Below are positions 2,340 to 54,821 of a stretch of DNA of 64,000 nt, piece by piece. How positions within the stretch are numbered: position 1 is the stretch's first letter; every line of letters begins with the position of its first letter. The notes under the pieces were generated by a model. The model saw nothing but the letters and a program-made list of their open reading frames with translations, ran no database searches and was not told the origin of the DNA. Made by a program: the position numbers and the translations under genes. Source of the stretch: a virus; IMG/VR virus record IMGVR_UViG_3300032334_001950, positions 1-64,000 of that record; one strand, given 5' to 3'.

Positions 2340-4925
2340 CTATTCCTCTTCTTTACCCTCAGGAAGAATTGTTCCGTGTGATTTAAACTTTTGATCAGAA
2401 GCCCGTACCGCCAAGCCCTTCACGTAAGCTCGACCTTTCTTCGAAAACGTAAAAACATCATTAAGGCCCAATTGGTTCTTGCAGCAGTCCATCAACAACG
2501 CAACAAAACGCCGCTGCCCCACCGACTTACTCCCTGTATCTTCGCAATACGCAGCATAACTCGGATACAAATGATGGTTGCTATTGCAATACCGCTCCTG
2601 GGCATCCTTTGCAGCGGGAATCTTCTTACCAATGGCTGCAACATTCTCTGGCGCCACAACAATTTCAGACTGCAACCAATCCACCAAATTATTGCTATTC
2701 AACAGGATCTCATTCTTCACCTTACGCAGCGACGGGACCAACTCATTGGTGTCCAGCAAATAACGACGCATATCACGTTCACCCATCTCCAGCACCCAAT
2801 TGACCAAGCCGGGCAAATAATCTTTCCATACCCCACCAATACTGCCCTTATTAATCTTGATCATATCCTTGGCTTCACTACTCTTGTTGTAAAGCGGCCT
2901 ATTGAACTCAATTGTGAGGCGACGGCGGCTTAATCCACTGGTGGGATCACTGGTCTGAATTGGTTCGTTAGCAGCCACCATAACCATACCCTCATAAACA
3001 AAGGGCTCCCCAATAGCCTTCAACTTCTCTTCATAGCGCAAGTTATCACCGCCCGTCAACGCCTTAAAGATCTGAGCAGAACCGCCATAACGCTCCGAGT
3101 CATTGATCAACGTCAGACGCTTATCCTTCAATGCCGAAACCTCAAACCGGCTCTGCTCCAGCTGGTTCAACGTACTACTGGCAAAGTTACCAGCACCCAC
3201 CATGGCGCAACATAAGTTGGTGAAGGTACTCTTACCGCGACCACCAGGACCAATAACTTCAAGAAAACGTTGAATTTCGTTGCCGCGACCCACTAGGCAA
3301 GCTCGTAACCAAGCTCGCAACACCTGTACACGATCTTCATCACCGTATTGTGTACGCAATAACCAATCACGGATGGGGCCGGGTTCAGCAGAAGGTTCAT
3401 ACGGAAAATCAAGACCCCAAGTCAAAAAATTCTGTTGTTTATGGTCACTGAATTCACCGCTGCTTAGGTCAAGTACGCCATTGGAGAAGGCAAGCATGGA
3501 GCTGTCATCATTCCATTCGGAACAAGACAGAAAACCACGCAACAAGAGGGCAACATCATTAACAAGGTTGTTGCTGTAGCCGCCGGGTAACTCCGCCATC
3601 TTAAGGTGAAATTGCACATTATGCAAAAAGTCCTCCCTATGTGCTTGTTTACGCCAAATCCCCTTGGCGCCGTCATACTGCAACCAATTCTCATACTGCG
3701 GGTCATATCGCCATCCATCACGTAACATCAGCGGAAACAGATTATCCGCTAGCTGCGACGAGGGTGGATTCCGTCCTTTCTTAGGAGCGTTACGGTTGAC
3801 GCCACCAGCAGCAAAATGCTCAGGATTCTCGCCATATTCCTCTTCATCCTCATCCTCCTCTGCTTCCTCCTCATCAATCTCCAACTGTGCATTCACCCGC
3901 TGCACAATTGCTTCCATCGATGGCGCAGCATAACCACCAAGATCCACATACCCATCTTCCTTCGCAATAGCCTTCAATGTCTTCAGGCCGCAGCCACCCT
4001 CAGGGTTTGGCCCACCAGGCAATCGCTCAAACGTAGCCCACTTCGCCTCGCAGCACCCATCTTCAAACGCATCAGACTGAGCCGACCACGCCACCCAGGC
4101 ATGCAACAGGCTGTCATCGATCTGGTGCAGAGCCATGCCGATGCGCACCCATTCGTGGTAATCATCAGCACGTTCAACATTCATTGCACCTAGATACTTG
4201 CAAGCATCCTCAATTACTGATTCCAAATGATACTTAGAATCAGTGTCATAATTCAACGTAATATTCTGGTTGATGAAGTTCGTAGCACCAACACCACGCT
4301 TCCGATACTTTGTACTTGGATATGCTTTTGCAATTTCTGCATAAACCCAGTCCGGTAATTCCGGTGGTGATGCAGCAAATTCAAACCCGCCATGCTCTGT
4401 CGTTCGGTAGCCATCCGTCTCAGGGTGTGCGCCGCAAATAGCACCCTGCCTACTTGACCACAACATCTCAAATGGTGCAGCCCCCAGCTTCAACGTGGCC
4501 CGTTCAGGTAGCCGTCCAATGCTGTCATTACTGACGCGGAACAGCATCCGCATGCGACCTTCTTTCCCACTAGCGATCGTTAACGTCGGAGGAAAAATTG
4601 AAGCGATCGGCCCGCCACCAAGCCGTTCAACAAATTCAATCCCTTCCGGCCCATCAAAATCAACCCAGATCAACCCATACTCATTACTAAATTGCCCCGA
4701 TAGCAACCCGATACCTGTAGCCCGCCCCTCCTCAATCTCCTTCTGGATCTGAGTTACAGTCAGTGGATTAGTGGTCCATCCGGGAAGGTATGCTTTCTTC
4801 CCCCGCAATGGGGTCAACGCCCAATCAACGGGTATCCAATCCAGCTTGATTTCACCAGGTTGGAGGTGTTTACGGGGGCGGCGGGGCTCCAGGGTCGCGG
4901 TGGCGCTCACAGGGGGATATGGCAA
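2340..4925 (-). CDS. Primase-helicase (prim-pol, PriCT-2, D5-type SF3 helicase)
   Basis: An 861-residue replication protein. Residues about 30-190 look like a bifunctional primase-polymerase domain: GKKAYLPGW, then WVDFDG with D89 and D91 as likely metal ligands. Residues 250-300 resemble PriCT-2 (DYHEWVRIGMAL, WVAWSAQSDAF). A very acidic linker follows at 350-370. The D5/SF3 helicase comes next, with Walker A GPGGRGKST at 559-567 and LTLINDSE as a Walker B-type segment. It should synthesise primers and unwind DNA at the fork for the PolA encoded downstream. The first codon is TTG with no clear ribosome-binding site, so the exact start is uncertain. Confidence 0.88.
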   Translation of the reverse strand: MPYPPVSATATLEPRRPRKHLQPGEIKLDWIPVDWALTPLRGKKAYLPGWTTNPLTVTQIQKEIEEGRATGIGLLSGQFSNEYGLIWVDFDGPEGIEFVERLGGGPIASIFPPTLTIASGKEGRMRMLFRVSNDSIGRLPERATLKLGAAPFEMLWSSRQGAICGAHPETDGYRTTEHGGFEFAASPPELPDWVYAEIAKAYPSTKYRKRGVGATNFINQNITLNYDTDSKYHLESVIEDACKYLGAMNVERADDYHEWVRIGMALHQIDDSLLHAWVAWSAQSDAFEDGCCEAKWATFERLPGGPNPEGGCGLKTLKAIAKEDGYVDLGGYAAPSMEAIVQRVNAQLEIDEEEAEEDEDEEEYGENPEHFAAGGVNRNAPKKGRNPPSSQLADNLFPLMLRDGWRYDPQYENWLQYDGAKGIWRKQAHREDFLHNVQFHLKMAELPGGYSNNLVNDVALLLRGFLSCSEWNDDSSMLAFSNGVLDLSSGEFSDHKQQNFLTWGLDFPYEPSAEPGPIRDWLLRTQYGDEDRVQVLRAWLRACLVGRGNEIQRFLEVIGPGGRGKSTFTNLCCAMVGAGNFASSTLNQLEQSRFEVSALKDKRLTLINDSERYGGSAQIFKALTGGDNLRYEEKLKAIGEPFVYEGMVMVAANEPIQTSDPTSGLSRRRLTIEFNRPLYNKSSEAKDMIKINKGSIGGVWKDYLPGLVNWVLEMGERDMRRYLLDTNELVPSLRKVKNEILLNSNNLVDWLQSEIVVAPENVAAIGKKIPAAKDAQERYCNSNHHLYPSYAAYCEDTGSKSVGQRRFVALLMDCCKNQLGLNDVFTFSKKGRAYVKGLAVRASDQKFKSHGTILPEGKEEE

Positions 4926-6039: not shown

Positions 6040-6402
6040 ATGGAGCAGGCCTCGGGCGCGAAAGGTAAACATTGTATTGGTGAAGTTTACGGCGCGAATT
6101 CTGACCTGCTAAATGATGAAGACTTTATTTGTAGTGCTCTTAGAGAAGCAGCGATGCAATCCGGTGCAACGTTACTGAAGATTGGTTCACATAAATTCCA
6201 CCCACAAGGCGTCACAGCATTTGCATTGCTGGCGGAGAGCCACATAAGCATCCACACCTGGCCAGAACTTCAATATGCAAACCTAGACGCATTCACGTGC
6301 GGCAGTCATACTGATCCAGAAAAAGCATTTGCTGTATTAAAGCAATTATTCAAAGCAACATCAAGTTATTCGAAAACAATTAAGCGCGCTTACTTTGGCT
6401 AA
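6040..6402 (+). CDS. speD: S-adenosylmethionine decarboxylase proenzyme
   Basis: A 120-residue prokaryotic class SpeD. ESHISIHTWPE contains the self-cleavage site E66-S67; Ser67 would become the pyruvoyl cofactor. H72 and C87 (DAFTCG) match the conserved processing and catalytic residues of the family. The enzyme makes decarboxylated AdoMet, the aminopropyl donor for spermidine. Phage speD is a known auxiliary metabolic gene in cyanophages, presumably supporting polyamine supply for DNA packaging or host translation. It is a lone plus-strand gene between minus-strand genes, with its own -10 box. All expected motifs are intact. Confidence 0.93.
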   Translation: MEQASGAKGKHCIGEVYGANSDLLNDEDFICSALREAAMQSGATLLKIGSHKFHPQGVTAFALLAESHISIHTWPELQYANLDAFTCGSHTDPEKAFAVLKQLFKATSSYSKTIKRAYFG

Positions 6403-6408
6403 GTCAAG

Positions 6409-6741
6409 TTAATCGTGTTCGATCTCAGGTGGCCGATCTTCAAGCCTAGCAGGTTTTTCGGATTGGAATACCCCTTCCAAGTTGGCAGCAAATTTTGCCT
6501 GGTGGTAATGACCAACATGCACTTGGACCTTGGCGTAGGTCTCCAGGGCAACTGCAATAGCGTCATCAGGACTGATACTTAACTTACTATTTGCAAGTAA
6601 ACCAGCAGTCAAGATGCAAACGCCCAACTCCTGGGGGTTACTCAGGAATGAACGCAGGCTTTTTCCATTGTCCGTAAGGCTACTAAGCAACCAAACAAGA
6701 CTTTCTACGTGGTTAGGCTGATTGGGGTCCTGGATAGCCAT
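6409..6741 (-). CDS. Hypothetical protein
   Basis: A 110-residue, mostly helical soluble protein; the C-terminus is charged (PARLEDRPPEIEHD). No family is recognised. Its ATG overlaps the stop of the upstream winged-helix gene as TAATG, so the two are probably translationally coupled. It ends six bases from the convergent speD stop. Confidence 0.6.
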   Translation of the reverse strand: MAIQDPNQPNHVESLVWLLSSLTDNGKSLRSFLSNPQELGVCILTAGLLANSKLSISPDDAIAVALETYAKVQVHVGHYHQAKFAANLEGVFQSEKPARLEDRPPEIEHD

Positions 6742-9273: not shown

Positions 9274-9451
9274 AGGTTTTGGGAAGATCTTCTTGAGAAA
9301 AGGGAATAGTAGAAATACTGAAGCTGCCATCGTCGAGTTCACGGAAGAATAACTCATCGCCTTCTTTCCAGCCCAGACGATCTACCAGTTCATCGGGGAA
9401 GACAATAGTGCCATCCTCGTCAACCGGCAAACTATAAACAGGGTTACTCAT
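9182..9451 (-). CDS. AbrB/SpoVT-like DNA-binding protein
   Basis: An 89-residue protein. Residues about 4-45 form an AbrB-like swapped-hairpin sequence: YSLPVDEDGTIVFPDELVDR, LGWKEGDELFFREL, GSFSIST. The C-terminal half is low in structure. AbrB-type proteins bind DNA as dimers, and cyanobacteria use cyAbrB as global regulators, so this one may influence phage or host transcription. The start (MSNPVYS) overlaps the upstream stop by eight bases. A second AbrB-like gene lies at 45741. Confidence 0.68.
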   Translation of the reverse strand: MSNPVYSLPVDEDGTIVFPDELVDRLGWKEGDELFFRELDDGSFSISTIPFSQEDLPKTYGKSYLGQHQEDVASPDPELYPAPGATDDR

Positions 9452-9758
9452 CTTTAAGTGTGGCACCAGCAAAATACTCTTGGACAACCTCTGCAAGCAT
9501 AAGTTTCAGCTCATTTTTGTTAACAAACCCGCATGGATCAAACCCGTCAGATTTTGTAATGCCGTTATCAGCTTCGTAGTGCTGGTTGGCAATATAAAGC
9601 AAATCTCCAGTGACATCGTAAACTTGCTTGCCATTGATGTCTTGAAAAGCAAAACAGTGGTTTTCTGCGATTCGCATCAGCGAAGCGTAGGCCAGGGCAA
9701 CTGTCGTAAAGGATACTTTGTACCCTTCTGGATCCTTGAGGAAATACTGATCGGCCAT
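9444..9758 (-). CDS. Hypothetical protein
   Basis: A 104-residue mixed alpha/beta protein beginning MADQYFLKDPEGYKVSFTTV. No family recognised. It is the first gene of the 9758-9076 group; a TAAACT box lies 23 bases before its ATG, and the next gene overlaps it by eight bases. Two cysteines are present but not in a metal-binding pattern. Confidence 0.6.
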   Translation of the reverse strand: MADQYFLKDPEGYKVSFTTVALAYASLMRIAENHCFAFQDINGKQVYDVTGDLLYIANQHYEADNGITKSDGFDPCGFVNKNELKLMLAEVVQEYFAGATLKDE

Positions 9759-9846: not shown

Positions 9847-9874
9847 TTGACTTCCGAGGTAAATACGCTATGAT
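9847..9874 (+). promoter_or_regulatory. Sigma70-type promoter for structured RNA
   Basis: TTGACT (9847-9852) and TATGAT (9869-9874) are separated by 16 bases. This is the best two-part promoter in the window. Transcription would start near 9881, just before the string of hairpins. Confidence 0.65.
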
Positions 9875-9880
9875 ATTACC

Positions 9881-10111
9881 GATGCACGTAGCGCGTTGGG
9901 CCCATAGCCCAAAAGGCGGCGTGTCAACACCGAGGTAGCTCCTCATATGTAAGGTCGCTCCTTACAGTGTACCTCCGGCTAAACGGAGGGGTGCGTTCAT
10001 TAACCTTATAAATGAACCCAGCGGGAAAGGGACCCGCGCCTCAACGCTAAGCCAAATGGTTAGGCAATCCGACAAGGGGTCCTGTACCTGGTTCGATTCC
10101 AGGAGCGTTGA
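9881..10111 (+). ncRNA. Structured RNA with tRNA-like 3' domain
   Basis: Six hairpins follow one another: TTGGGC/GCCCAA (9896-9912), GAGG/CCTC (9932-9944), GTAAGG/CCTTAC (9949-9965), CCTCCG/CGGAGG (9972-9989), GTTCATT/AATGAAC (9995-10017) and GCGGG/CCCGC (10021-10037). Then comes a tRNA-like domain: 7-bp acceptor CAACGCT/AGCGTTG (10042-10048, 10104-10110), D arm GCC/GGC with GG in the loop, T arm CCTGG-TTCGATT-CCAGG and discriminator A10111, with no encoded CCA. The 21 bases where an anticodon arm should be (10066-10086) cannot form the normal 5-bp stem and 7-base loop. A T run (10112-10116) follows. It may be a regulatory RNA using a tRNA-like end for processing or stability, or a decayed tRNA joined to hairpins. 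Confidence 0.65.
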
Positions 10112-10118
10112 TTTTTGT

Positions 10119-10646
10119 TTAAGTTGATTCTTCTAATCCTTTACGTATAATGGCCCATTCTTTTGGTGTTGGCCACCAGCCACCTTCATGTTTGTTTAAC
10201 AATTCCAATGCTTGTTCTTTGTTGGTAAGCACAGGAGGTTTCCAATCATGAGTATGCAACCAAGGCATGTTTTCTTGAACAGAACTCCAGCGAATTGGTA
10301 CTATATAACCGTACAAAACACTTTGGATATGTACATGCCCATGTCTGTTACCATCTTTTTCAGTAGGCTTTCTATCTGTAATCCATGGGCATGACTCCCA
10401 CCATGCAACACTTGGATATTCATCATCCTTAGTTGGTTCAATTGTTTCTAACGGTAATATTTCTACAACATCACGAAAATTTTCTTCTTTATTAATAAAA
10501 TAATACCCATCATCTGTATAATTACGCGAGCCAGCTTCGTGAGGATAACAACAAGTTCCCATAAATTTTGTTTGATATTCAACAATTTCTCCAGTGCGAA
10601 GACGTACCTTCTGCCCTGGCACACAAGTGTTCAAGTTAACAGTCAT
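10119..10646 (-). CDS. Hypothetical protein (DUF551-like segment)
   Basis: A 175-residue soluble protein with many Trp residues. The N-terminus has VPGQKVRLRTGEIVEYQTKF, an SH3-like beta pattern. The middle part (WWESCPWITDRKPTEKDG) resembles the opening of DUF551 domains found in phage proteins, and the C-terminus is helical (ALELLNKHEGGWWPTPKEW). The DUF assignment is tentative. Its stop abuts the T run of the structured RNA on the other strand. Confidence 0.55.
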   Translation of the reverse strand: MTVNLNTCVPGQKVRLRTGEIVEYQTKFMGTCCYPHEAGSRNYTDDGYYFINKEENFRDVVEILPLETIEPTKDDEYPSVAWWESCPWITDRKPTEKDGNRHGHVHIQSVLYGYIVPIRWSSVQENMPWLHTHDWKPPVLTNKEQALELLNKHEGGWWPTPKEWAIIRKGLEEST

Positions 10647-16327: not shown

Positions 16328-17557
16328 GTGGCGTTATTTCCCGGTACAAACTTTAATTATTTTGGTAGCCAACAAAACACAGATGATGCCGACGAGTGGA
16401 ATAACGTCCCACAAGATAGTACAATATCTTTCGATCCAAGCTCACTGGACAAATCTGCAGGGAATTTCGGTGGTCAATATAGAGATGTAGCACTTGATCC
16501 CGGTCAATTTGCTAGGGCTTTTGCGCAGAAAATTTCCCAGGGTTACGGGGCAGTTGATAGGGCGTTAGGGGGAGTTTTGCCTGGTGGTGCAGATAGCCCA
16601 TATATTGGGGCATCTACTACAGCGGCTGGACGCAAGGGTGCAGTTGACGCAGCAAGTACCTGGGCTGTAGATGCTGCGTTACCGTTGGCGAATAAAGCCG
16701 CACTTGCCCTAGTCGACAGGGCCCAGAAGAACCCGGCAGCACAAATATCATTGCAAACGTTGAATGATATTCGACAAAGAGTAAGCAACACACTTGGTAA
16801 AGATGTCGTAGCATACGTCGGGCCAAAACAGTATCCCCATTTTGATCCATCAGATGAATTTTCAAAGGGGCCTGCTATCGCCTTACGGCCCTCCACACCC
16901 ACTACAGATTTGGGCATTATGCTATATGGGTCTAAACCGCAAAATCTTAGAGAATTTGAAAATACGCTTGTCCACTCACCCATAGCTTTACATGAGTTGG
17001 GGCATGCACTTAATACAGGAGACCCATTTGCAAATAGATTAGCAGAATCTCGAAACATGGATATCAATCGATTTACAGGGTATAGTCGCACGCCAAATTA
17101 CATAGCAGGTATTGGGGCGGCCACTTCAGATAAAAACGGAAACAAAAGTCTTTTGGCATCGGGCATACAGGGAGCCTTAGAATATTTAGCCGCGCCAGGC
17201 ACTCGGCATACGCTTGCAGAAGAAGCTTTGGCAAGCAGAAATGCAATAAATCTTGCTGATGAATTTAATTTACCTCGTGGCATTCCGGGACTTGGGGCTG
17301 CTTTTGGTACGTATGCTACATCTAGGGCCATGCCAGGATTCACTACGGGAGTCGCGTCTGAATTAGTCACACGCGGGGCTAGAGCATTTGGCAATGCAAT
17401 TGGTGATTACATTATTGACCCGATAGGTGACCGCATTAGGGGAAATGACTACAATCCCCTTGAACAACAATTGCGCAAGTACGGATACAATGAAAAAGAT
17501 TACAGGTTAGCCCAGCCAGGCGGATTTGGTGCACCTGTCCAAGTGCAGCACAAGTAG
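16328..17557 (+). CDS. Putative virion protein with HELGH zinc-protease motif
   Basis: A 409-residue protein read from GTG. The zincin motif HELGH lies at 222-226 in PIALHELGHALNT, and LAEEALASRN near residue 296 offers a Glu third ligand, as in gluzincins. Around the motif, FENTLVHSP and the Asn/Asp-rich flanks fit a metallopeptidase helix. The N-terminal third resembles other putative virion proteins here (Ala/Gly-rich helices, residues 95-130). It may be a packaged protease that processes virion or host proteins. The gene is a plus-strand island with an AGTAGAAT box. Family membership beyond the motif is not recognised. Confidence 0.6.
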   Translation: MALFPGTNFNYFGSQQNTDDADEWNNVPQDSTISFDPSSLDKSAGNFGGQYRDVALDPGQFARAFAQKISQGYGAVDRALGGVLPGGADSPYIGASTTAAGRKGAVDAASTWAVDAALPLANKAALALVDRAQKNPAAQISLQTLNDIRQRVSNTLGKDVVAYVGPKQYPHFDPSDEFSKGPAIALRPSTPTTDLGIMLYGSKPQNLREFENTLVHSPIALHELGHALNTGDPFANRLAESRNMDINRFTGYSRTPNYIAGIGAATSDKNGNKSLLASGIQGALEYLAAPGTRHTLAEEALASRNAINLADEFNLPRGIPGLGAAFGTYATSRAMPGFTTGVASELVTRGARAFGNAIGDYIIDPIGDRIRGNDYNPLEQQLRKYGYNEKDYRLAQPGGFGAPVQVQHK

Positions 17558-23059: not shown

Positions 23060-23384
23060 TGAGTTGCTCCAGTGCTTTGCGGATGGTGTCATAGTCACTA
23101 GGGCTGGGAATAACCCCATGTTCTAGACCCGTCAGACTGTGTAATGCCTGCTTTTTCAAGCTCGGCGGCTTAGGGCGGCATGCTTCGCGGAGTTCTGTAT
23201 GTTCGTGCTCGTGACCTTCTAGTTTCAACCACTCACAGCACCTTTCCAACTCAACGTCAGCACCCCATTGTGCGGCGCGGGTGGCTAATTGTTGCTTCCA
23301 TGATGTGGATAGATTGTCTATCGCGTCATACCACTGCTCCACCAACTCAGGTGGCGGGATGATCGGGTGTTGTTGGTCAGTCAT
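23052..23384 (-). CDS. Conserved small cyanophage protein
   Basis: A 110-residue protein, MTDQQHPIIPPPELVEQWYD onward, with RAAQWGADVELERCCEWL and RPKPPSLKKQALHSL. This 'PPELVxQW ... GADxELExCCEWL ... RPKPPSLKxQAL' layout is a recurrent cyanophage accessory family without known function. It overlaps thyX by four bases and the next gene by eight. Confidence 0.65.
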   Translation of the reverse strand: MTDQQHPIIPPPELVEQWYDAIDNLSTSWKQQLATRAAQWGADVELERCCEWLKLEGHEHEHTELREACRPKPPSLKKQALHSLTGLEHGVIPSPSDYDTIRKALEQLND

Positions 23385-24004
23385 TTGAATGCAGCCTCAC
23401 CAATGACAGGGAATTGATGGATAAAAATTTGCTTGCAGCCTTCTGCAATTAACCGATGCTCTAGTTGTGTACCTGGATCAGTGCGTACATTAATATAATG
23501 TATCCAAGACCGCAAGCAGCCGTTCATATACAAAGTAGTTTGTGTGCTAAGTGGAAGAATGCGGCGTGCACATTCTTTGGCCACATGATTTTTAATCATT
23601 TGAGCATAAAGATCTTCAATATCTGCATATAGATTACGAATCTGTTCATCATAGTAAGAATGTGCATAAGGATCAAGATCATCTGTACTGTTTTGTCTGT
23701 TCTTTAGATCTTGCCTACGTAATTCTGGAACAACAGCAGGCCGTGCTTCTGCATACCTGGTACTGAACTCTTGAAAACTAAATGAACGATGGCGTAAAAT
23801 CTGTGCAGAAATGTCGCGCTCTGTGTGTATTTGCACACAAAGATTAGCCATTTCAAATGGTGACCAGTGCTGGTGACTAATAAGATACCGCAATAGTTTT
23901 GGTGCAGTTGCTAAGTTGTTTTCATTGTCAGGATTGGATACCCTGGCCATCTTTACAATCAAAGCTTCTGCATTAGGAGTGCAGTGAACAAATTCAACAG
24001 TCAT
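23381..24004 (-). CDS. thyX: Flavin-dependent thymidylate synthase
   Basis: A 207-residue ThyX. The signature RHRSFSFQEFSTRY spans residues 71-84 and matches RHR-x7-S-x-RY. HWSPFEMANL and the C-terminal ARRILPLSTQTTLY/NGCLRSWIHYINVR provide FAD and dUMP contacts. It methylates dUMP to dTMP with methylenetetrahydrofolate and reduced FAD. Together with the phage dCMP deaminase it forms a dCMP-to-dTMP route. It sits inside a run of small accessory genes with four-base overlaps. Confidence 0.95.
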   Translation of the reverse strand: MTVEFVHCTPNAEALIVKMARVSNPDNENNLATAPKLLRYLISHQHWSPFEMANLCVQIHTERDISAQILRHRSFSFQEFSTRYAEARPAVVPELRRQDLKNRQNSTDDLDPYAHSYYDEQIRNLYADIEDLYAQMIKNHVAKECARRILPLSTQTTLYMNGCLRSWIHYINVRTDPGTQLEHRLIAEGCKQIFIHQFPVIGEAAFK

Positions 24005-49968: not shown

Positions 49969-50060
49969 ATGTTTATTGATAATGACTTTCCTAAGCTGTT
50001 AGGTGCGGAGCTTTATCGCCCCCACCCGGCTTACATCGTCGAAATGGCCGCAGAACCGGT
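49969..50060 (+). CDS. Major capsid protein, exon 1
   Basis: The first 92 bases of the split gene encode MFIDNDFPKLLGAELYRPHP then AYIVEMAAEPV (the last codon is shared with exon 2). FPKLLGAELYRPHPAY and EMAAEPV are typical of capsid proteins of this phage group. Without splicing, translation stops two codons into the intron (GTT GAA TAA). The exon ends at a GGT where P1 of the intron predicts the splice site. Confidence 0.85.
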
Positions 50061-51188
50061 TGAATAACAGCCGCCTTTTTGAGTAATCAAAAAGTGATAA
50101 CCCGGTGAATTGCTGGAAACCCTTCTAAAAGAATTGAACCCTACAACGTAATCAGTAATGATAAGCGTGATAGGTTGAAAAGTTTCAATTGTCGGGCAAT
50201 CAGCAGCCAAGCTTCCTAGGAATAGGTGGAAGGTTCAACGACTAGGGTACACGATCCAGAACGGATTATGAAACCCATTAGCGCCGGGGCTCCCAAAATT
50301 GAATGTAATTTTTAAATTTACGTTCAATGGCAAAATCAGAATTCTGGTAAATAGCTTGTATTGCCTTGGCATCTTTTTTGTATCCGGGCAAATGAAACAA
50401 GTTGCTACCATTTTTGGTAAATTCTGATTTGATCGGCAACTCTACGCTTGATATTAATTTGATCCATGTTTGGAGTTGTACAGCAAATTTGATTGACGCG
50501 GTGGTGATTTTAAAGCGGCGATCTGTTACAGAACCGTCGCCATCCCAAGCCCCACGCAAAAAATGAGGCACTAAGTTTTCTTGCAGTGTTGTCGTGATCT
50601 CTAAAGTTTTAGATTTATTGGGTAAAATACCCAATTTCATCAAATCTTTAACCAAGGCAACTCTACTTAAAACCAATGACTTTTGTGGTAATGATTTTTT
50701 ACCACGTATTGTTGAAATCTTGGTTTGCAATTTTGGGGCATTTGAGCCCAGCTCGTTGCGAAATCTTTCAAGAATTAAACAATCCTCTTCTTTTAATGCG
50801 ATGCGAGCAGCCGTCAATCTAGGATTAATATTTCCATCGGTTGCCAATAGACCAAGAAAATAAGCCTTTCCTTCTGTATCAATTTTTTCAAAATAACGCT
50901 CGTTGTAATTGAAAAAAGAGTAAGTTTCGCCGGCTTTATTTTTTCTAAGCCCCGTCTGCTCAAAAAAAGATAGAAGGTTGAATTTTTTTCTGGCATTGTA
51001 AAAAGCAACCATTGATATATTTAGTTCTTTTGCTGCATCAGCATCAGACATCGTAGCAGAAAGTTCTGCTACCACTTCAAATGAAAGATTTAAGCGATTG
51101 TGCCGAGCCATGGGGAGCGTGATATAGTCTGTGCCCCACCGATGACAAAGGTGGGGAACAATGGATTGGGAAGCTCAATCCTAGCACG
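50061..51188 (+). other. Group I intron in the major capsid gene
   Basis: The intron is 1128 bases. P1: exon CGGTT pairs with AGCCG just inside, with a U-G pair at the splice site. P4: TGCTG (50111-50115) pairs with CAGCA (50201-50205). P7: GACTA (50240-50244) pairs with TAGTC (51125-51129). The conserved P, Q, R and S segments are all present (for example GAATTGCTGGAAAC and GGTTCAACGACTA). The last base is G51188. Removal rebuilds the frame E-P-V-V-V-H-D, matching capsid homologues I know. The large insert between R and S holds an endonuclease gene in the P8 region. Confidence 0.9.
50278..51111 (-). CDS. LAGLIDADG homing endonuclease (antisense in intron)
   Basis: A 277-residue single-chain LAGLIDADG enzyme. 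Motif 1 is YFLGLLATDG (84-93) and motif 2 FLRGAWDGDG (184-193), each ending in the acidic catalytic residue. An HTH-like segment (SDADAAKELNISMVAFYNAR) lies near residues 22-41. It should cut the intronless capsid allele and spread the intron. The gene is opposite to the capsid gene, so it cannot be translated from the late capsid mRNA and needs a minus-strand promoter. Its start lies seven bases from the intron's S segment. Confidence 0.9.
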   Translation of the reverse strand: MARHNRLNLSFEVVAELSATMSDADAAKELNISMVAFYNARKKFNLLSFFEQTGLRKNKAGETYSFFNYNERYFEKIDTEGKAYFLGLLATDGNINPRLTAARIALKEEDCLILERFRNELGSNAPKLQTKISTIRGKKSLPQKSLVLSRVALVKDLMKLGILPNKSKTLEITTTLQENLVPHFLRGAWDGDGSVTDRRFKITTASIKFAVQLQTWIKLISSVELPIKSEFTKNGSNLFHLPGYKKDAKAIQAIYQNSDFAIERKFKNYIQFWEPRR

Positions 51189-54077: not shown

Positions 54078-54821
54078 ATGGCGTCAAACATTGGTACATT
54101 ACAACAGGCTGATCGTCAAGCAATCTTTAATTCTGCGCAAAGATTGGGCGTCGATCCTTATCAATTGGGTGCAGTCATAAATCAAGAATCTGGTTTCCGT
54201 CCTAATCAATATGGGGGGGCCAACGGGAAGTATTATGGGCTTATTCAATTTGGCCCAGATGAGCAGAAACAATACCTTGACCAAAAACAAATGAATCACT
54301 ATTCAATTGCTGCGCAAATGCCAGCAGTTGAAAATTATTTAACGGGCAGAGGTTATAAACCTGGTATGGGGGTGGCAAAGCTTTATGCAACAATATTGGG
54401 AGGCAATCCAGGCGTTTCTTTAACAGCAAAAGATGCTTTTGGTACCTCGGTGGCAAGTTCTTTGCCAGGATTTCAGCCCGGTGGTGCATCTTATAAACAA
54501 GCGCAAGCTGCATTAGGAGGTGCTCTGCCAAGTAATGCCGAAAATTTCCCAACACAGCCAGGTACCTCAGCATTAACTGCGCCCCCCTCTTTTTCTCCTT
54601 CCCCTGTCCCCACCGATTTTTTAAATACATTTGTCAATAATTTGCTTGTCAAACCGGAAAAGGGTGATGATGGATTTGGTGGACTCACGCAGCCTATCGT
54701 TTCAGGTGCTACAGCTCCCATGTTAGTTCTTGATCCCGCTACACAACGCATGGTTGCTACAACACCGTTAACTATGACGCCGGAGTATCAAGCATTTGCA
54801 AGCCGTTTCATTGCAGGCTAA
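54078..54821 (+). CDS. Virion lytic transglycosylase (SLT fold)
   Basis: A 247-residue protein. Residues 14-95 are an SLT domain: LGVDPYQLGAVINQESGFRP with catalytic E37, then GKYYGLIQFG, the usual GLMQ-type motif. The rest is Pro/Ser-rich linker plus a short helical end. It should cut peptidoglycan from outside to aid DNA entry. The position among head-tail genes fits a virion-borne enzyme rather than an endolysin. Confidence 0.8.
   Translation: MASNIGTLQQADRQAIFNSAQRLGVDPYQLGAVINQESGFRPNQYGGANGKYYGLIQFGPDEQKQYLDQKQMNHYSIAAQMPAVENYLTGRGYKPGMGVAKLYATILGGNPGVSLTAKDAFGTSVASSLPGFQPGGASYKQAQAALGGALPSNAENFPTQPGTSALTAPPSFSPSPVPTDFLNTFVNNLLVKPEKGDDGFGGLTQPIVSGATAPMLVLDPATQRMVATTPLTMTPEYQAFASRFIAG

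What the first reader, a model, noticed from the sequence alone, without database searches (positions are those of the whole stretch)
9847..10120. Independent structured RNA with a tRNA-like 3' end but no anticodon arm
A promoter (TTGACT, 16 bases, TATGAT) is followed by six hairpins in a row and then a tRNA-like domain with a perfect 7-bp acceptor stem, D arm, T arm with TTCGATT, and discriminator A. The 21 bases between D and T arms cannot form a normal anticodon stem and loop, so it is unlikely to decode. GGGTCC in that gap can instead pair with GGACCC upstream (10030-10035), a possible switch. A T run follows. The whole unit of about 230 nt, between two minus-strand genes, reads as one transcript. 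A tRNA-like end could serve RNase P/Z processing, CCA addition, protection, or mimicry of tRNA for a host factor; bacterial Y RNAs of the YrlA type are a known precedent for tRNA-like modules.
Basis: partly seen in the sequence, partly recalled or inferred. Interest (0 to 1): 0.78.

Follow-up and report, generated by a model that had tools for sequence, protein, structure and literature searches.

The report
Phage tRNA-shaped RNA without anticodon
This cyanobacterial virus makes a folded non-coding RNA that ends in a tRNA-shaped piece whose decoding loop is replaced by a conserved tiny hairpin; the same unlabelled piece recurs in many other phages, often beside RNA "antitoxins", so it is probably part of how these viruses blunt host defences.

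Summary
Window 9847-10111 carries a promoter conserved in relatives, six hairpins and a tRNA-shaped 3' domain (TLD, 10042-10111). The phage is related to Synechococcus phage S-EIV1. ARAGORN and Rfam do not recognise the RNA. Scans recovered dozens of relatives in S-EIV1-like phages, T4-like cyanophages (S-PM2, S-CREM1; unannotated) and a few other phages. The hairpin covaries strongly (CCC/GGG, GTG/CAC, GCA/TGC, GCG/CGC, GCC/GGC, GTA/TAC) around an almost invariant GAYAA loop. A model built without the window's clade still finds it (58.8 bits, E 1e-16). Upstream hairpins are recurring, covarying modules; some phages have only promoter plus TLD. In relatives the module just 5' of the TLD is often abiF RNA, a known toxin-neutralising RNA, and no AbiF toxin gene was found in 19 phage records. 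Best reading: a trans-acting, probably counter-defence RNA array whose TLD is processed like a tRNA and binds a host tRNA-interacting protein. Structure and family are shown; the target is inferred. The proposed switch and terminator are not supported.

The parts
9847..9874 (+). sigma-70-type promoter, -35 TTGACT (9847-9852), 16 nt, -10 TATGAT (9869-9874)
   Evidence: equivalent TTGAC[AT]-16-TATGAT/TAGAAT in L003, L366, L137
9884..9924 (+). module A: compound hairpin with conserved core GCGTT-NGGC-ANATA-GCCN-ARAAGGCG (core 9893-9918); always the 5'-most module of the arrays that start at a promoter
   Evidence: fold; pattern scan (38 viral stretches); covariation (inner helix 100% of cells paired); compensatory changes in window relatives
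9932..9944 (+). hairpin GAGG-TAGCT-CCTC (optional, absent in L003)
9948..9966 (+). hairpin TGTAAGG-TCGCT-CCTTACA (optional, absent in L003)
9972..9989 (+). hairpin CCTCCG-GCTAAA-CGGAGG
   Evidence: same CCGGCTAAACGG element in L378, L382, L385
9995..10017 (+). hairpin GTTCATT-N9-AATGAAC, covarying (ATCCATT/GATGGAT in L137)
10021..10037 (+). module C hairpin GCGGG-AAAGGGA-CCCGC; compensatory C-G to T-A in L003 and L137; fills the place just 5' of the TLD that abiF RNA fills in relatives
10042..10111 (+). tRNA-like domain (TLD): 7-bp acceptor stem, D arm, GACAA-loop hairpin, T arm, discriminator A10111; no encoded CCA
   Evidence: (58.8 bits, E 1.1e-16 with a model that excludes the window's clade)
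10067..10080 (+). hairpin in place of the anticodon arm: pairs 10068-10078, 10069-10077, 10070-10076 and 10067-10080, GACAA loop 10071-10075, bulge 10079
   Evidence: covariation across 49-50 relatives; loop and stem census

Best explanation
A promoter-driven, trans-acting phage non-coding RNA. Its constant element is a tRNA-shaped domain in which the anticodon loop is replaced by a 3-4 bp hairpin with a GAYAA loop, so it lacks U33 and a 7-nt loop and cannot decode. In the S-EIV1-like phages other structured modules sit between promoter and TLD. The most likely working: the transcript is handled by the host's tRNA machinery (cut 5' of the acceptor stem by RNase P, 3' trimming and CCA addition), releasing the upstream modules and a stable tRNA-shaped product. 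The modules then bind and occupy host proteins. The abiF-type modules of relatives would neutralise AbiF-type abortive-infection toxins, and the TLD would act as an uncleavable, non-decoding decoy for a tRNA-binding host protein, probably a tRNA-targeting defence factor. Shown: structure, family, conservation, architecture, abiF neighbour. Inferred: transcription, processing, target, defence role.
For: Structure and family: covariation score 0.678 vs 0.201 shuffled, 93% of cells paired, hairpin pairs change on both sides in 12-21 of 49 sequences (also 75); unsupervised RNAalifold gives the same clover-leaf plus hairpin; loop GACAA in 50 of 56 distinct TLDs, GATAA in 5, AACAA in 1; the scan anchored only on D and T arms left the hairpin free and still returned GAYAA hairpins with changing stems. 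The R1 model gives one hit of 62 bits or more in each of 18 phages, against 45 bits or less for all other hits including the true tRNAs. Autonomy: in L346 (same phage as L140) and L106 a -10 box lies directly before the TLD, with no other module. Counter-defence context: abiF RNA (RF03085) lies 4 nt 5' of the TLD in L096 and L109. All 17 distinct abiF copies in my loci are followed within a few nt by a TLD (7), another tRNA-like (1) or a true tRNA (9). No Abi_2 gene in 19 records searched, several of them fragments. AbiF is a toxin neutralised by its ncRNA (PMC12373285). Phages are known to use antitoxin-mimic RNA against ToxIN (PMC3475682). S-CREM1, which carries a TLD and abiF, also encodes three protein antitoxins (PMC9964418).
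Against: No expression, processing or binding data. The window's own RNA holds no recognisable abiF module, so the defence argument is by association with relatives. No host protein that recognises a GAYAA-loop tRNA shape is known to me. TLDs inside T4-like phage tRNA clusters could serve translation-related roles. Some large S-EIV1-like contigs (66 and 83 kb) show no TLD, so it is dispensable. I could not test whether the cyanobacterial hosts encode AbiF.
Confidence: 0.42

Rival explanations
1. The TLD is only a processing and stability device: a tRNA-shaped 3' end that lets RNase P cut the upstream modules free and protects the transcript, with the anticodon loop closed off so that it cannot disturb translation.
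For: Modules abut a TLD or a true tRNA interchangeably, with spacers of a few nt; manA RNA abuts a TLD in L160 and a tRNA in S-CREM1; no conserved terminator after the TLD; in L003 and L366 a plus-strand ORF follows.
Against: Does not explain why the loop GAYAA is almost invariant while its stem and the acceptor stem vary freely, nor TLD-only genes, nor a dedicated TLD within clusters full of true tRNAs.
Confidence: 0.25
2. A tRNA mimic that acts on translation or another host tRNA-binding factor (a synthetase, EF-Tu, a ribosomal site, a modification enzyme) to favour phage gene expression, unrelated to defence.
For: Intact tRNA elbow features (D-loop GG, TTCGA T loop); D stem with U11-A24 and U13.G22 resembling tRNA-Glu, and true tRNA-Glu genes were caught by the same D-arm pattern; location in tRNA clusters.
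Against: Acceptor stem and discriminator are not conserved, which argues against one synthetase; the abiF neighbourhood points to defence.
Confidence: 0.2
3. A working tRNA with an odd anticodon arm (ARAGORN labels some relatives tRNA-Cys(ACA)).
For: ARAGORN calls in L103, L114, L133; Rfam tRNA model passes in a few relatives.
Against: Position 33 is G, not U; positions 32 and 38 form a covarying Watson-Crick pair, leaving a 5-nt loop; stem sequences change freely; not called in the window.
Confidence: 0.05
4. A decayed tRNA pseudogene.
For: Probably derived from a tRNA such as tRNA-Glu.
Against: Overwhelming compensatory change across phage lineages; the 70-nt TLD is identical in L003 while the hairpins upstream differ.
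Confidence: 0.02
5. A cis-acting leader of a downstream phage gene.
For: In L003 and L366 a plus-strand ORF starts soon after the TLD.
Against: Downstream genes differ between relatives; in the window and in S-EIV1 the next gene is on the opposite strand.
Confidence: 0.06

Closest known systems
Canonical tRNA (Rfam RF00005)
   Same: acceptor, D and T arms, tRNA length, clustering with tRNA genes in T4-like cyanophages
   Different: anticodon loop replaced by a GAYAA pentaloop on a covarying 3-4 bp stem, no U33, 7-66 usually mismatched (G.A or U.C), usually missed by ARAGORN and by the Rfam tRNA model
abiF RNA (RF03085), antitoxin RNA of AbiF toxins
   Same: short structured module found directly 5' of the TLD in relatives, orphan (no AbiF toxin found in those phages)
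   Different: the window's own RNA lacks it; module C sits in that position
Pseudo-ToxI RNA of phage PhiTE (PMC3475682)
   Same: phage-encoded RNA used against a toxin with an RNA antitoxin
   Different: PhiTE uses tandem copies of one pseudoknot and has been shown to work; here modules are heterogeneous, end in a tRNA shape, and are untested
manA and wcaG RNAs of cyanophages (RF01745, RF01761)
   Same: structured RNAs in the same tRNA clusters; manA directly abuts a TLD or a tRNA
   Different: other sequence and fold; classed as cis-regulatory
GOLLD/ROOL large phage RNAs; bacterial Y RNAs (YrlA)
   Same: ornate non-coding RNAs of phages or bacteria; YrlA carries a tRNA-like module (from memory)
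   Different: no Rfam match of either kind in the window; smaller and modular, and the TLD has its own loop signature

Membership tests
tRNA | 7-bp acceptor, D arm and T arm with TTCRA loop | tested here: met
tRNA | anticodon arm of 5 bp with 7-nt loop and U33 | tested here: not met
   GACAA 5-nt loop, position 33 = G, covarying 32-38 pair
tRNA | recognised by ARAGORN or Rfam RF00005 at gathering score | tested here: not met
   window; a few relatives pass
tRNA | aminoacylation and decoding | not testable with these tools
   needs acid-gel or charging assay
tmRNA | tag reading frame and pseudoknots; ARAGORN or Rfam call | tested here: not met
YrlA / Y RNA | match to an Rfam Y-RNA model | tested here: not met
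   nothing up to E 10
YrlA / Y RNA | binds Ro60/Rsr | not testable with these tools
   no binding data; a phage Ro gene was not searched for
abiF RNA | RF03085 match in the window RNA | tested here: not met
   met in relatives L096, L109, L128, L141, L171, L228, L231, L234, L243
RNA antitoxin mimic (pseudo-ToxI-like) | neutralises a host toxin in trans | not testable with these tools
   abiF neighbour and missing toxin gene are circumstantial
GOLLD / ROOL | Rfam match | tested here: not met

The most novel reading that the evidence does not exclude
A new, widespread class of phage RNA: a non-decoding tRNA mimic with a GAYAA pentaloop that sequesters a tRNA-targeting defence protein, deployed alone or at the 3' end of interchangeable RNA modules that include orphan RNA antitoxins; in effect an RNA counter-defence array excised by the host's own tRNA-processing enzymes.
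Probability: 0.3. Interest if true: 0.9.

Novelty: new variant of a known kind. Interest (0 to 1): 0.74.

Why it matters
An abundant, unannotated RNA family sits in well-studied cyanophages (S-PM2, S-RIM8, S-RIM32, S-CREM1, S-EIV1). It offers a concrete, testable candidate for RNA-based counter-defence, links orphan abiF antitoxin RNAs to tRNA-type processing, and suggests that some phage 'undetermined tRNAs' are not tRNAs at all. It also implies that manA RNA may be a processed trans-acting module rather than only a cis-regulator.

Tried and rejected
First viral pattern scan used a wrong spacer and found nothing. blastn of the whole RNA in the phages collection found nothing, and the first search of relatives by DNA found only L003; the S-EIV1 TLD appeared only with a permissive local blastn. 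Literature searches for the motif string and for anticodon-less phage tRNA-like RNAs gave nothing. The bacterial genome scan with the CCC/GGG form gave 53 hits, nearly all without a matching acceptor stem, i.e. chance or coding; one TLD-like case in a Thiotrichaceae MAG. The Streptomyces phage hit was not a TLD. Module A was not found in cultured phage records by blastn. GOLLD, tmRNA and Y RNA rejected for lack of matches. No expression data for S-PM2 found.

Full report
What is there. The window is 64 kb of a 72-kb virus record whose terminase is 62% identical to that of Synechococcus phage S-EIV1. Between minus-strand ORFs at 9444-9758 and 10119-10646 lies a plus-strand promoter (9847-9874), six hairpins and a tRNA-like domain. 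The RNA folds 3.3 s.d. better than dinucleotide shuffles, with none of 200 shuffles as good. ARAGORN and Rfam are silent.

The gap is a hairpin. In the near relative L003 the TLD is identical and the flanks have diverged, with two hairpins missing. S-EIV1 itself carries a TLD at 16384-16452. Comparing the two showed CCGACAAGGG as the most conserved stretch. A pattern scan with that string plus a loose T arm returned 83 viral stretches. About 50 of them are complete TLDs with unrelated but self-complementary acceptor stems; the rest are coding or chance. To avoid the bias of fixing the hairpin, a second scan fixed only the D and T arms. Loci fetched by module A added GCC/GGC and GGC/GCT.

Quantified. 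On 50 TLDs, 92% of cells pair; the covariation score is 0.627 against 0.197 in shuffles and 0.16 or less in slid controls. On 49 TLDs without the window's clade it is 0.678 against 0.201, and RNAalifold without guidance draws the same structure. T-stem columns 55-56 with 64-65 were fixed by the patterns and say nothing. The sequences are related, so counts are not independent events, but stem replacements occur between lineages. The leave-clade-out model R2 finds the window at 58.8 bits, E 1.1e-16. With R1, 18 phages give one hit of 62 bits or more each, and all other hits, true tRNAs included, stay at 45 bits or less. In tRNA numbering the hairpin is an anticodon arm in which 32-38 pairs and 33 is G, leaving the 5-nt loop G-A-Y-A-A. 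Such loops can adopt a GNRA-like fold with one base flipped out, as in P22 boxB (from memory, not tested). Pair 7-66 is mostly G.A or U.C.

Distribution. The TLD occurs in S-EIV1-like phages, in Kyanoviridae (S-PM2, S-RIM8, S-SZBM1, S-RIM32, S-CREM1, DSL-LC03), where the place carries no annotation and often lies in a tRNA cluster, and in a few phages with quite different acceptor stems. It is not in every S-EIV1-like phage. The bacterial genome scan with the CCC/GGG form found essentially none.

The 5' part is modular. In S-EIV1-like phages the promoter is followed by module A, then optional modules (B, C, D and others), then the TLD at the 3' end. L346/L140 and L106 have the -10 box directly before the TLD. 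Module A, searched without reference to the TLD, hits 38 viral stretches; its core is conserved and its stems covary (the distal outer stem is weaker). Many of these stretches have a TLD a short way downstream. In the window's clade, compensatory changes support module A, the 9995-10017 hairpin and the 10021-10037 hairpin.

The abiF link. Module D is Rfam abiF RNA in L096, L109, L128 and L141; S-EIV1 and several relatives have what looks like an expanded version (by eye). All 17 distinct abiF copies among my loci are followed within a few nt by a TLD, another tRNA-like or a tRNA. No Abi_2 gene was found in 19 phage records, several of them fragments. abiF RNA neutralises AbiF toxins by direct binding (PMC12373285), and phage RNA mimics of a toxin-neutralising RNA are established for ToxIN (PMC3475682). 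The S-CREM1 paper reported its abiF, manA and wcaG RNAs (PMC9964418); the TLD at L228 1499-1570 in the same cluster carries no annotation.

Mechanism. Shown: a family of structured, conserved, promoter-preceded RNAs with a tRNA-shaped domain that lacks a decoding loop, and its architecture. Inferred from known tRNA enzymology: RNase P cleavage 5' of the acceptor stem and CCA addition. Inferred from the neighbourhood: a counter-defence role with the modules as protein-binding decoys, the TLD being a decoy for a tRNA-interacting host protein. The near-invariant loop against freely varying stems argues that the loop is read by a partner, which a pure processing role would not require; that rival is nonetheless kept at 0.25.

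Limits. No expression data; host genomes could not be queried for AbiF; the window's own RNA lacks abiF; the target is unknown.

Noticed in passing
L160 6293-6505 / 6506-6577; L228 1746-1960 / 1960-2032: manA RNA, classed as cis-regulatory, ends exactly where a TLD (L160) or a tRNA-Asn (S-CREM1) begins, suggesting it is a processed trans-acting module.
   Followed up: partly
L004 16493-16560; L356 about 4828-4903; G033 110588-110662; G037 54510-54584: A second, different tRNA-like unit (CACCTGG..CCAGGTG acceptor in the relatives, odd anticodon region) follows the TLD in tandem or replaces it in several S-EIV1-like phages.
   Followed up: no
window 10119-10646: The 175-aa ORF is absent from L003, where homology breaks at the end of the TLD; a distant relative lies in L002, so a gene was gained or lost exactly at the tRNA-like 3' end.
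   Followed up: partly
L003 about 4600-4761 (-), L361 downstream of module A, L106 upstream of the TLD: A small conserved phage ORF (K/R-rich..GSGE.MRKPGSKGAPT.., 78 phage records) recurs beside these RNA arrays.
   Followed up: no
window 50052-50354 and 50278-51111: Group I intron (RF00028, 53.6 bits) with an overlapping minus-strand ORF that looks like a homing endonuclease.
   Followed up: no
L208 4231-4300 (-): A TLD-like unit with CCGACAAGGG and an encoded CCA beside a tRNA-like hit in a Thiotrichaceae MAG contig, 42 bits with R2: a possible cellular relative.
   Followed up: partly
L363 11430-11481: Two copies of the 26-nt module A core in direct tandem, one inserted in the other, then abiF-like and true tRNAs.
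   Followed up: no
window 6040-6402 and 23381-24004: S-adenosylmethionine decarboxylase and ThyX genes carried by the phage.
   Followed up: no
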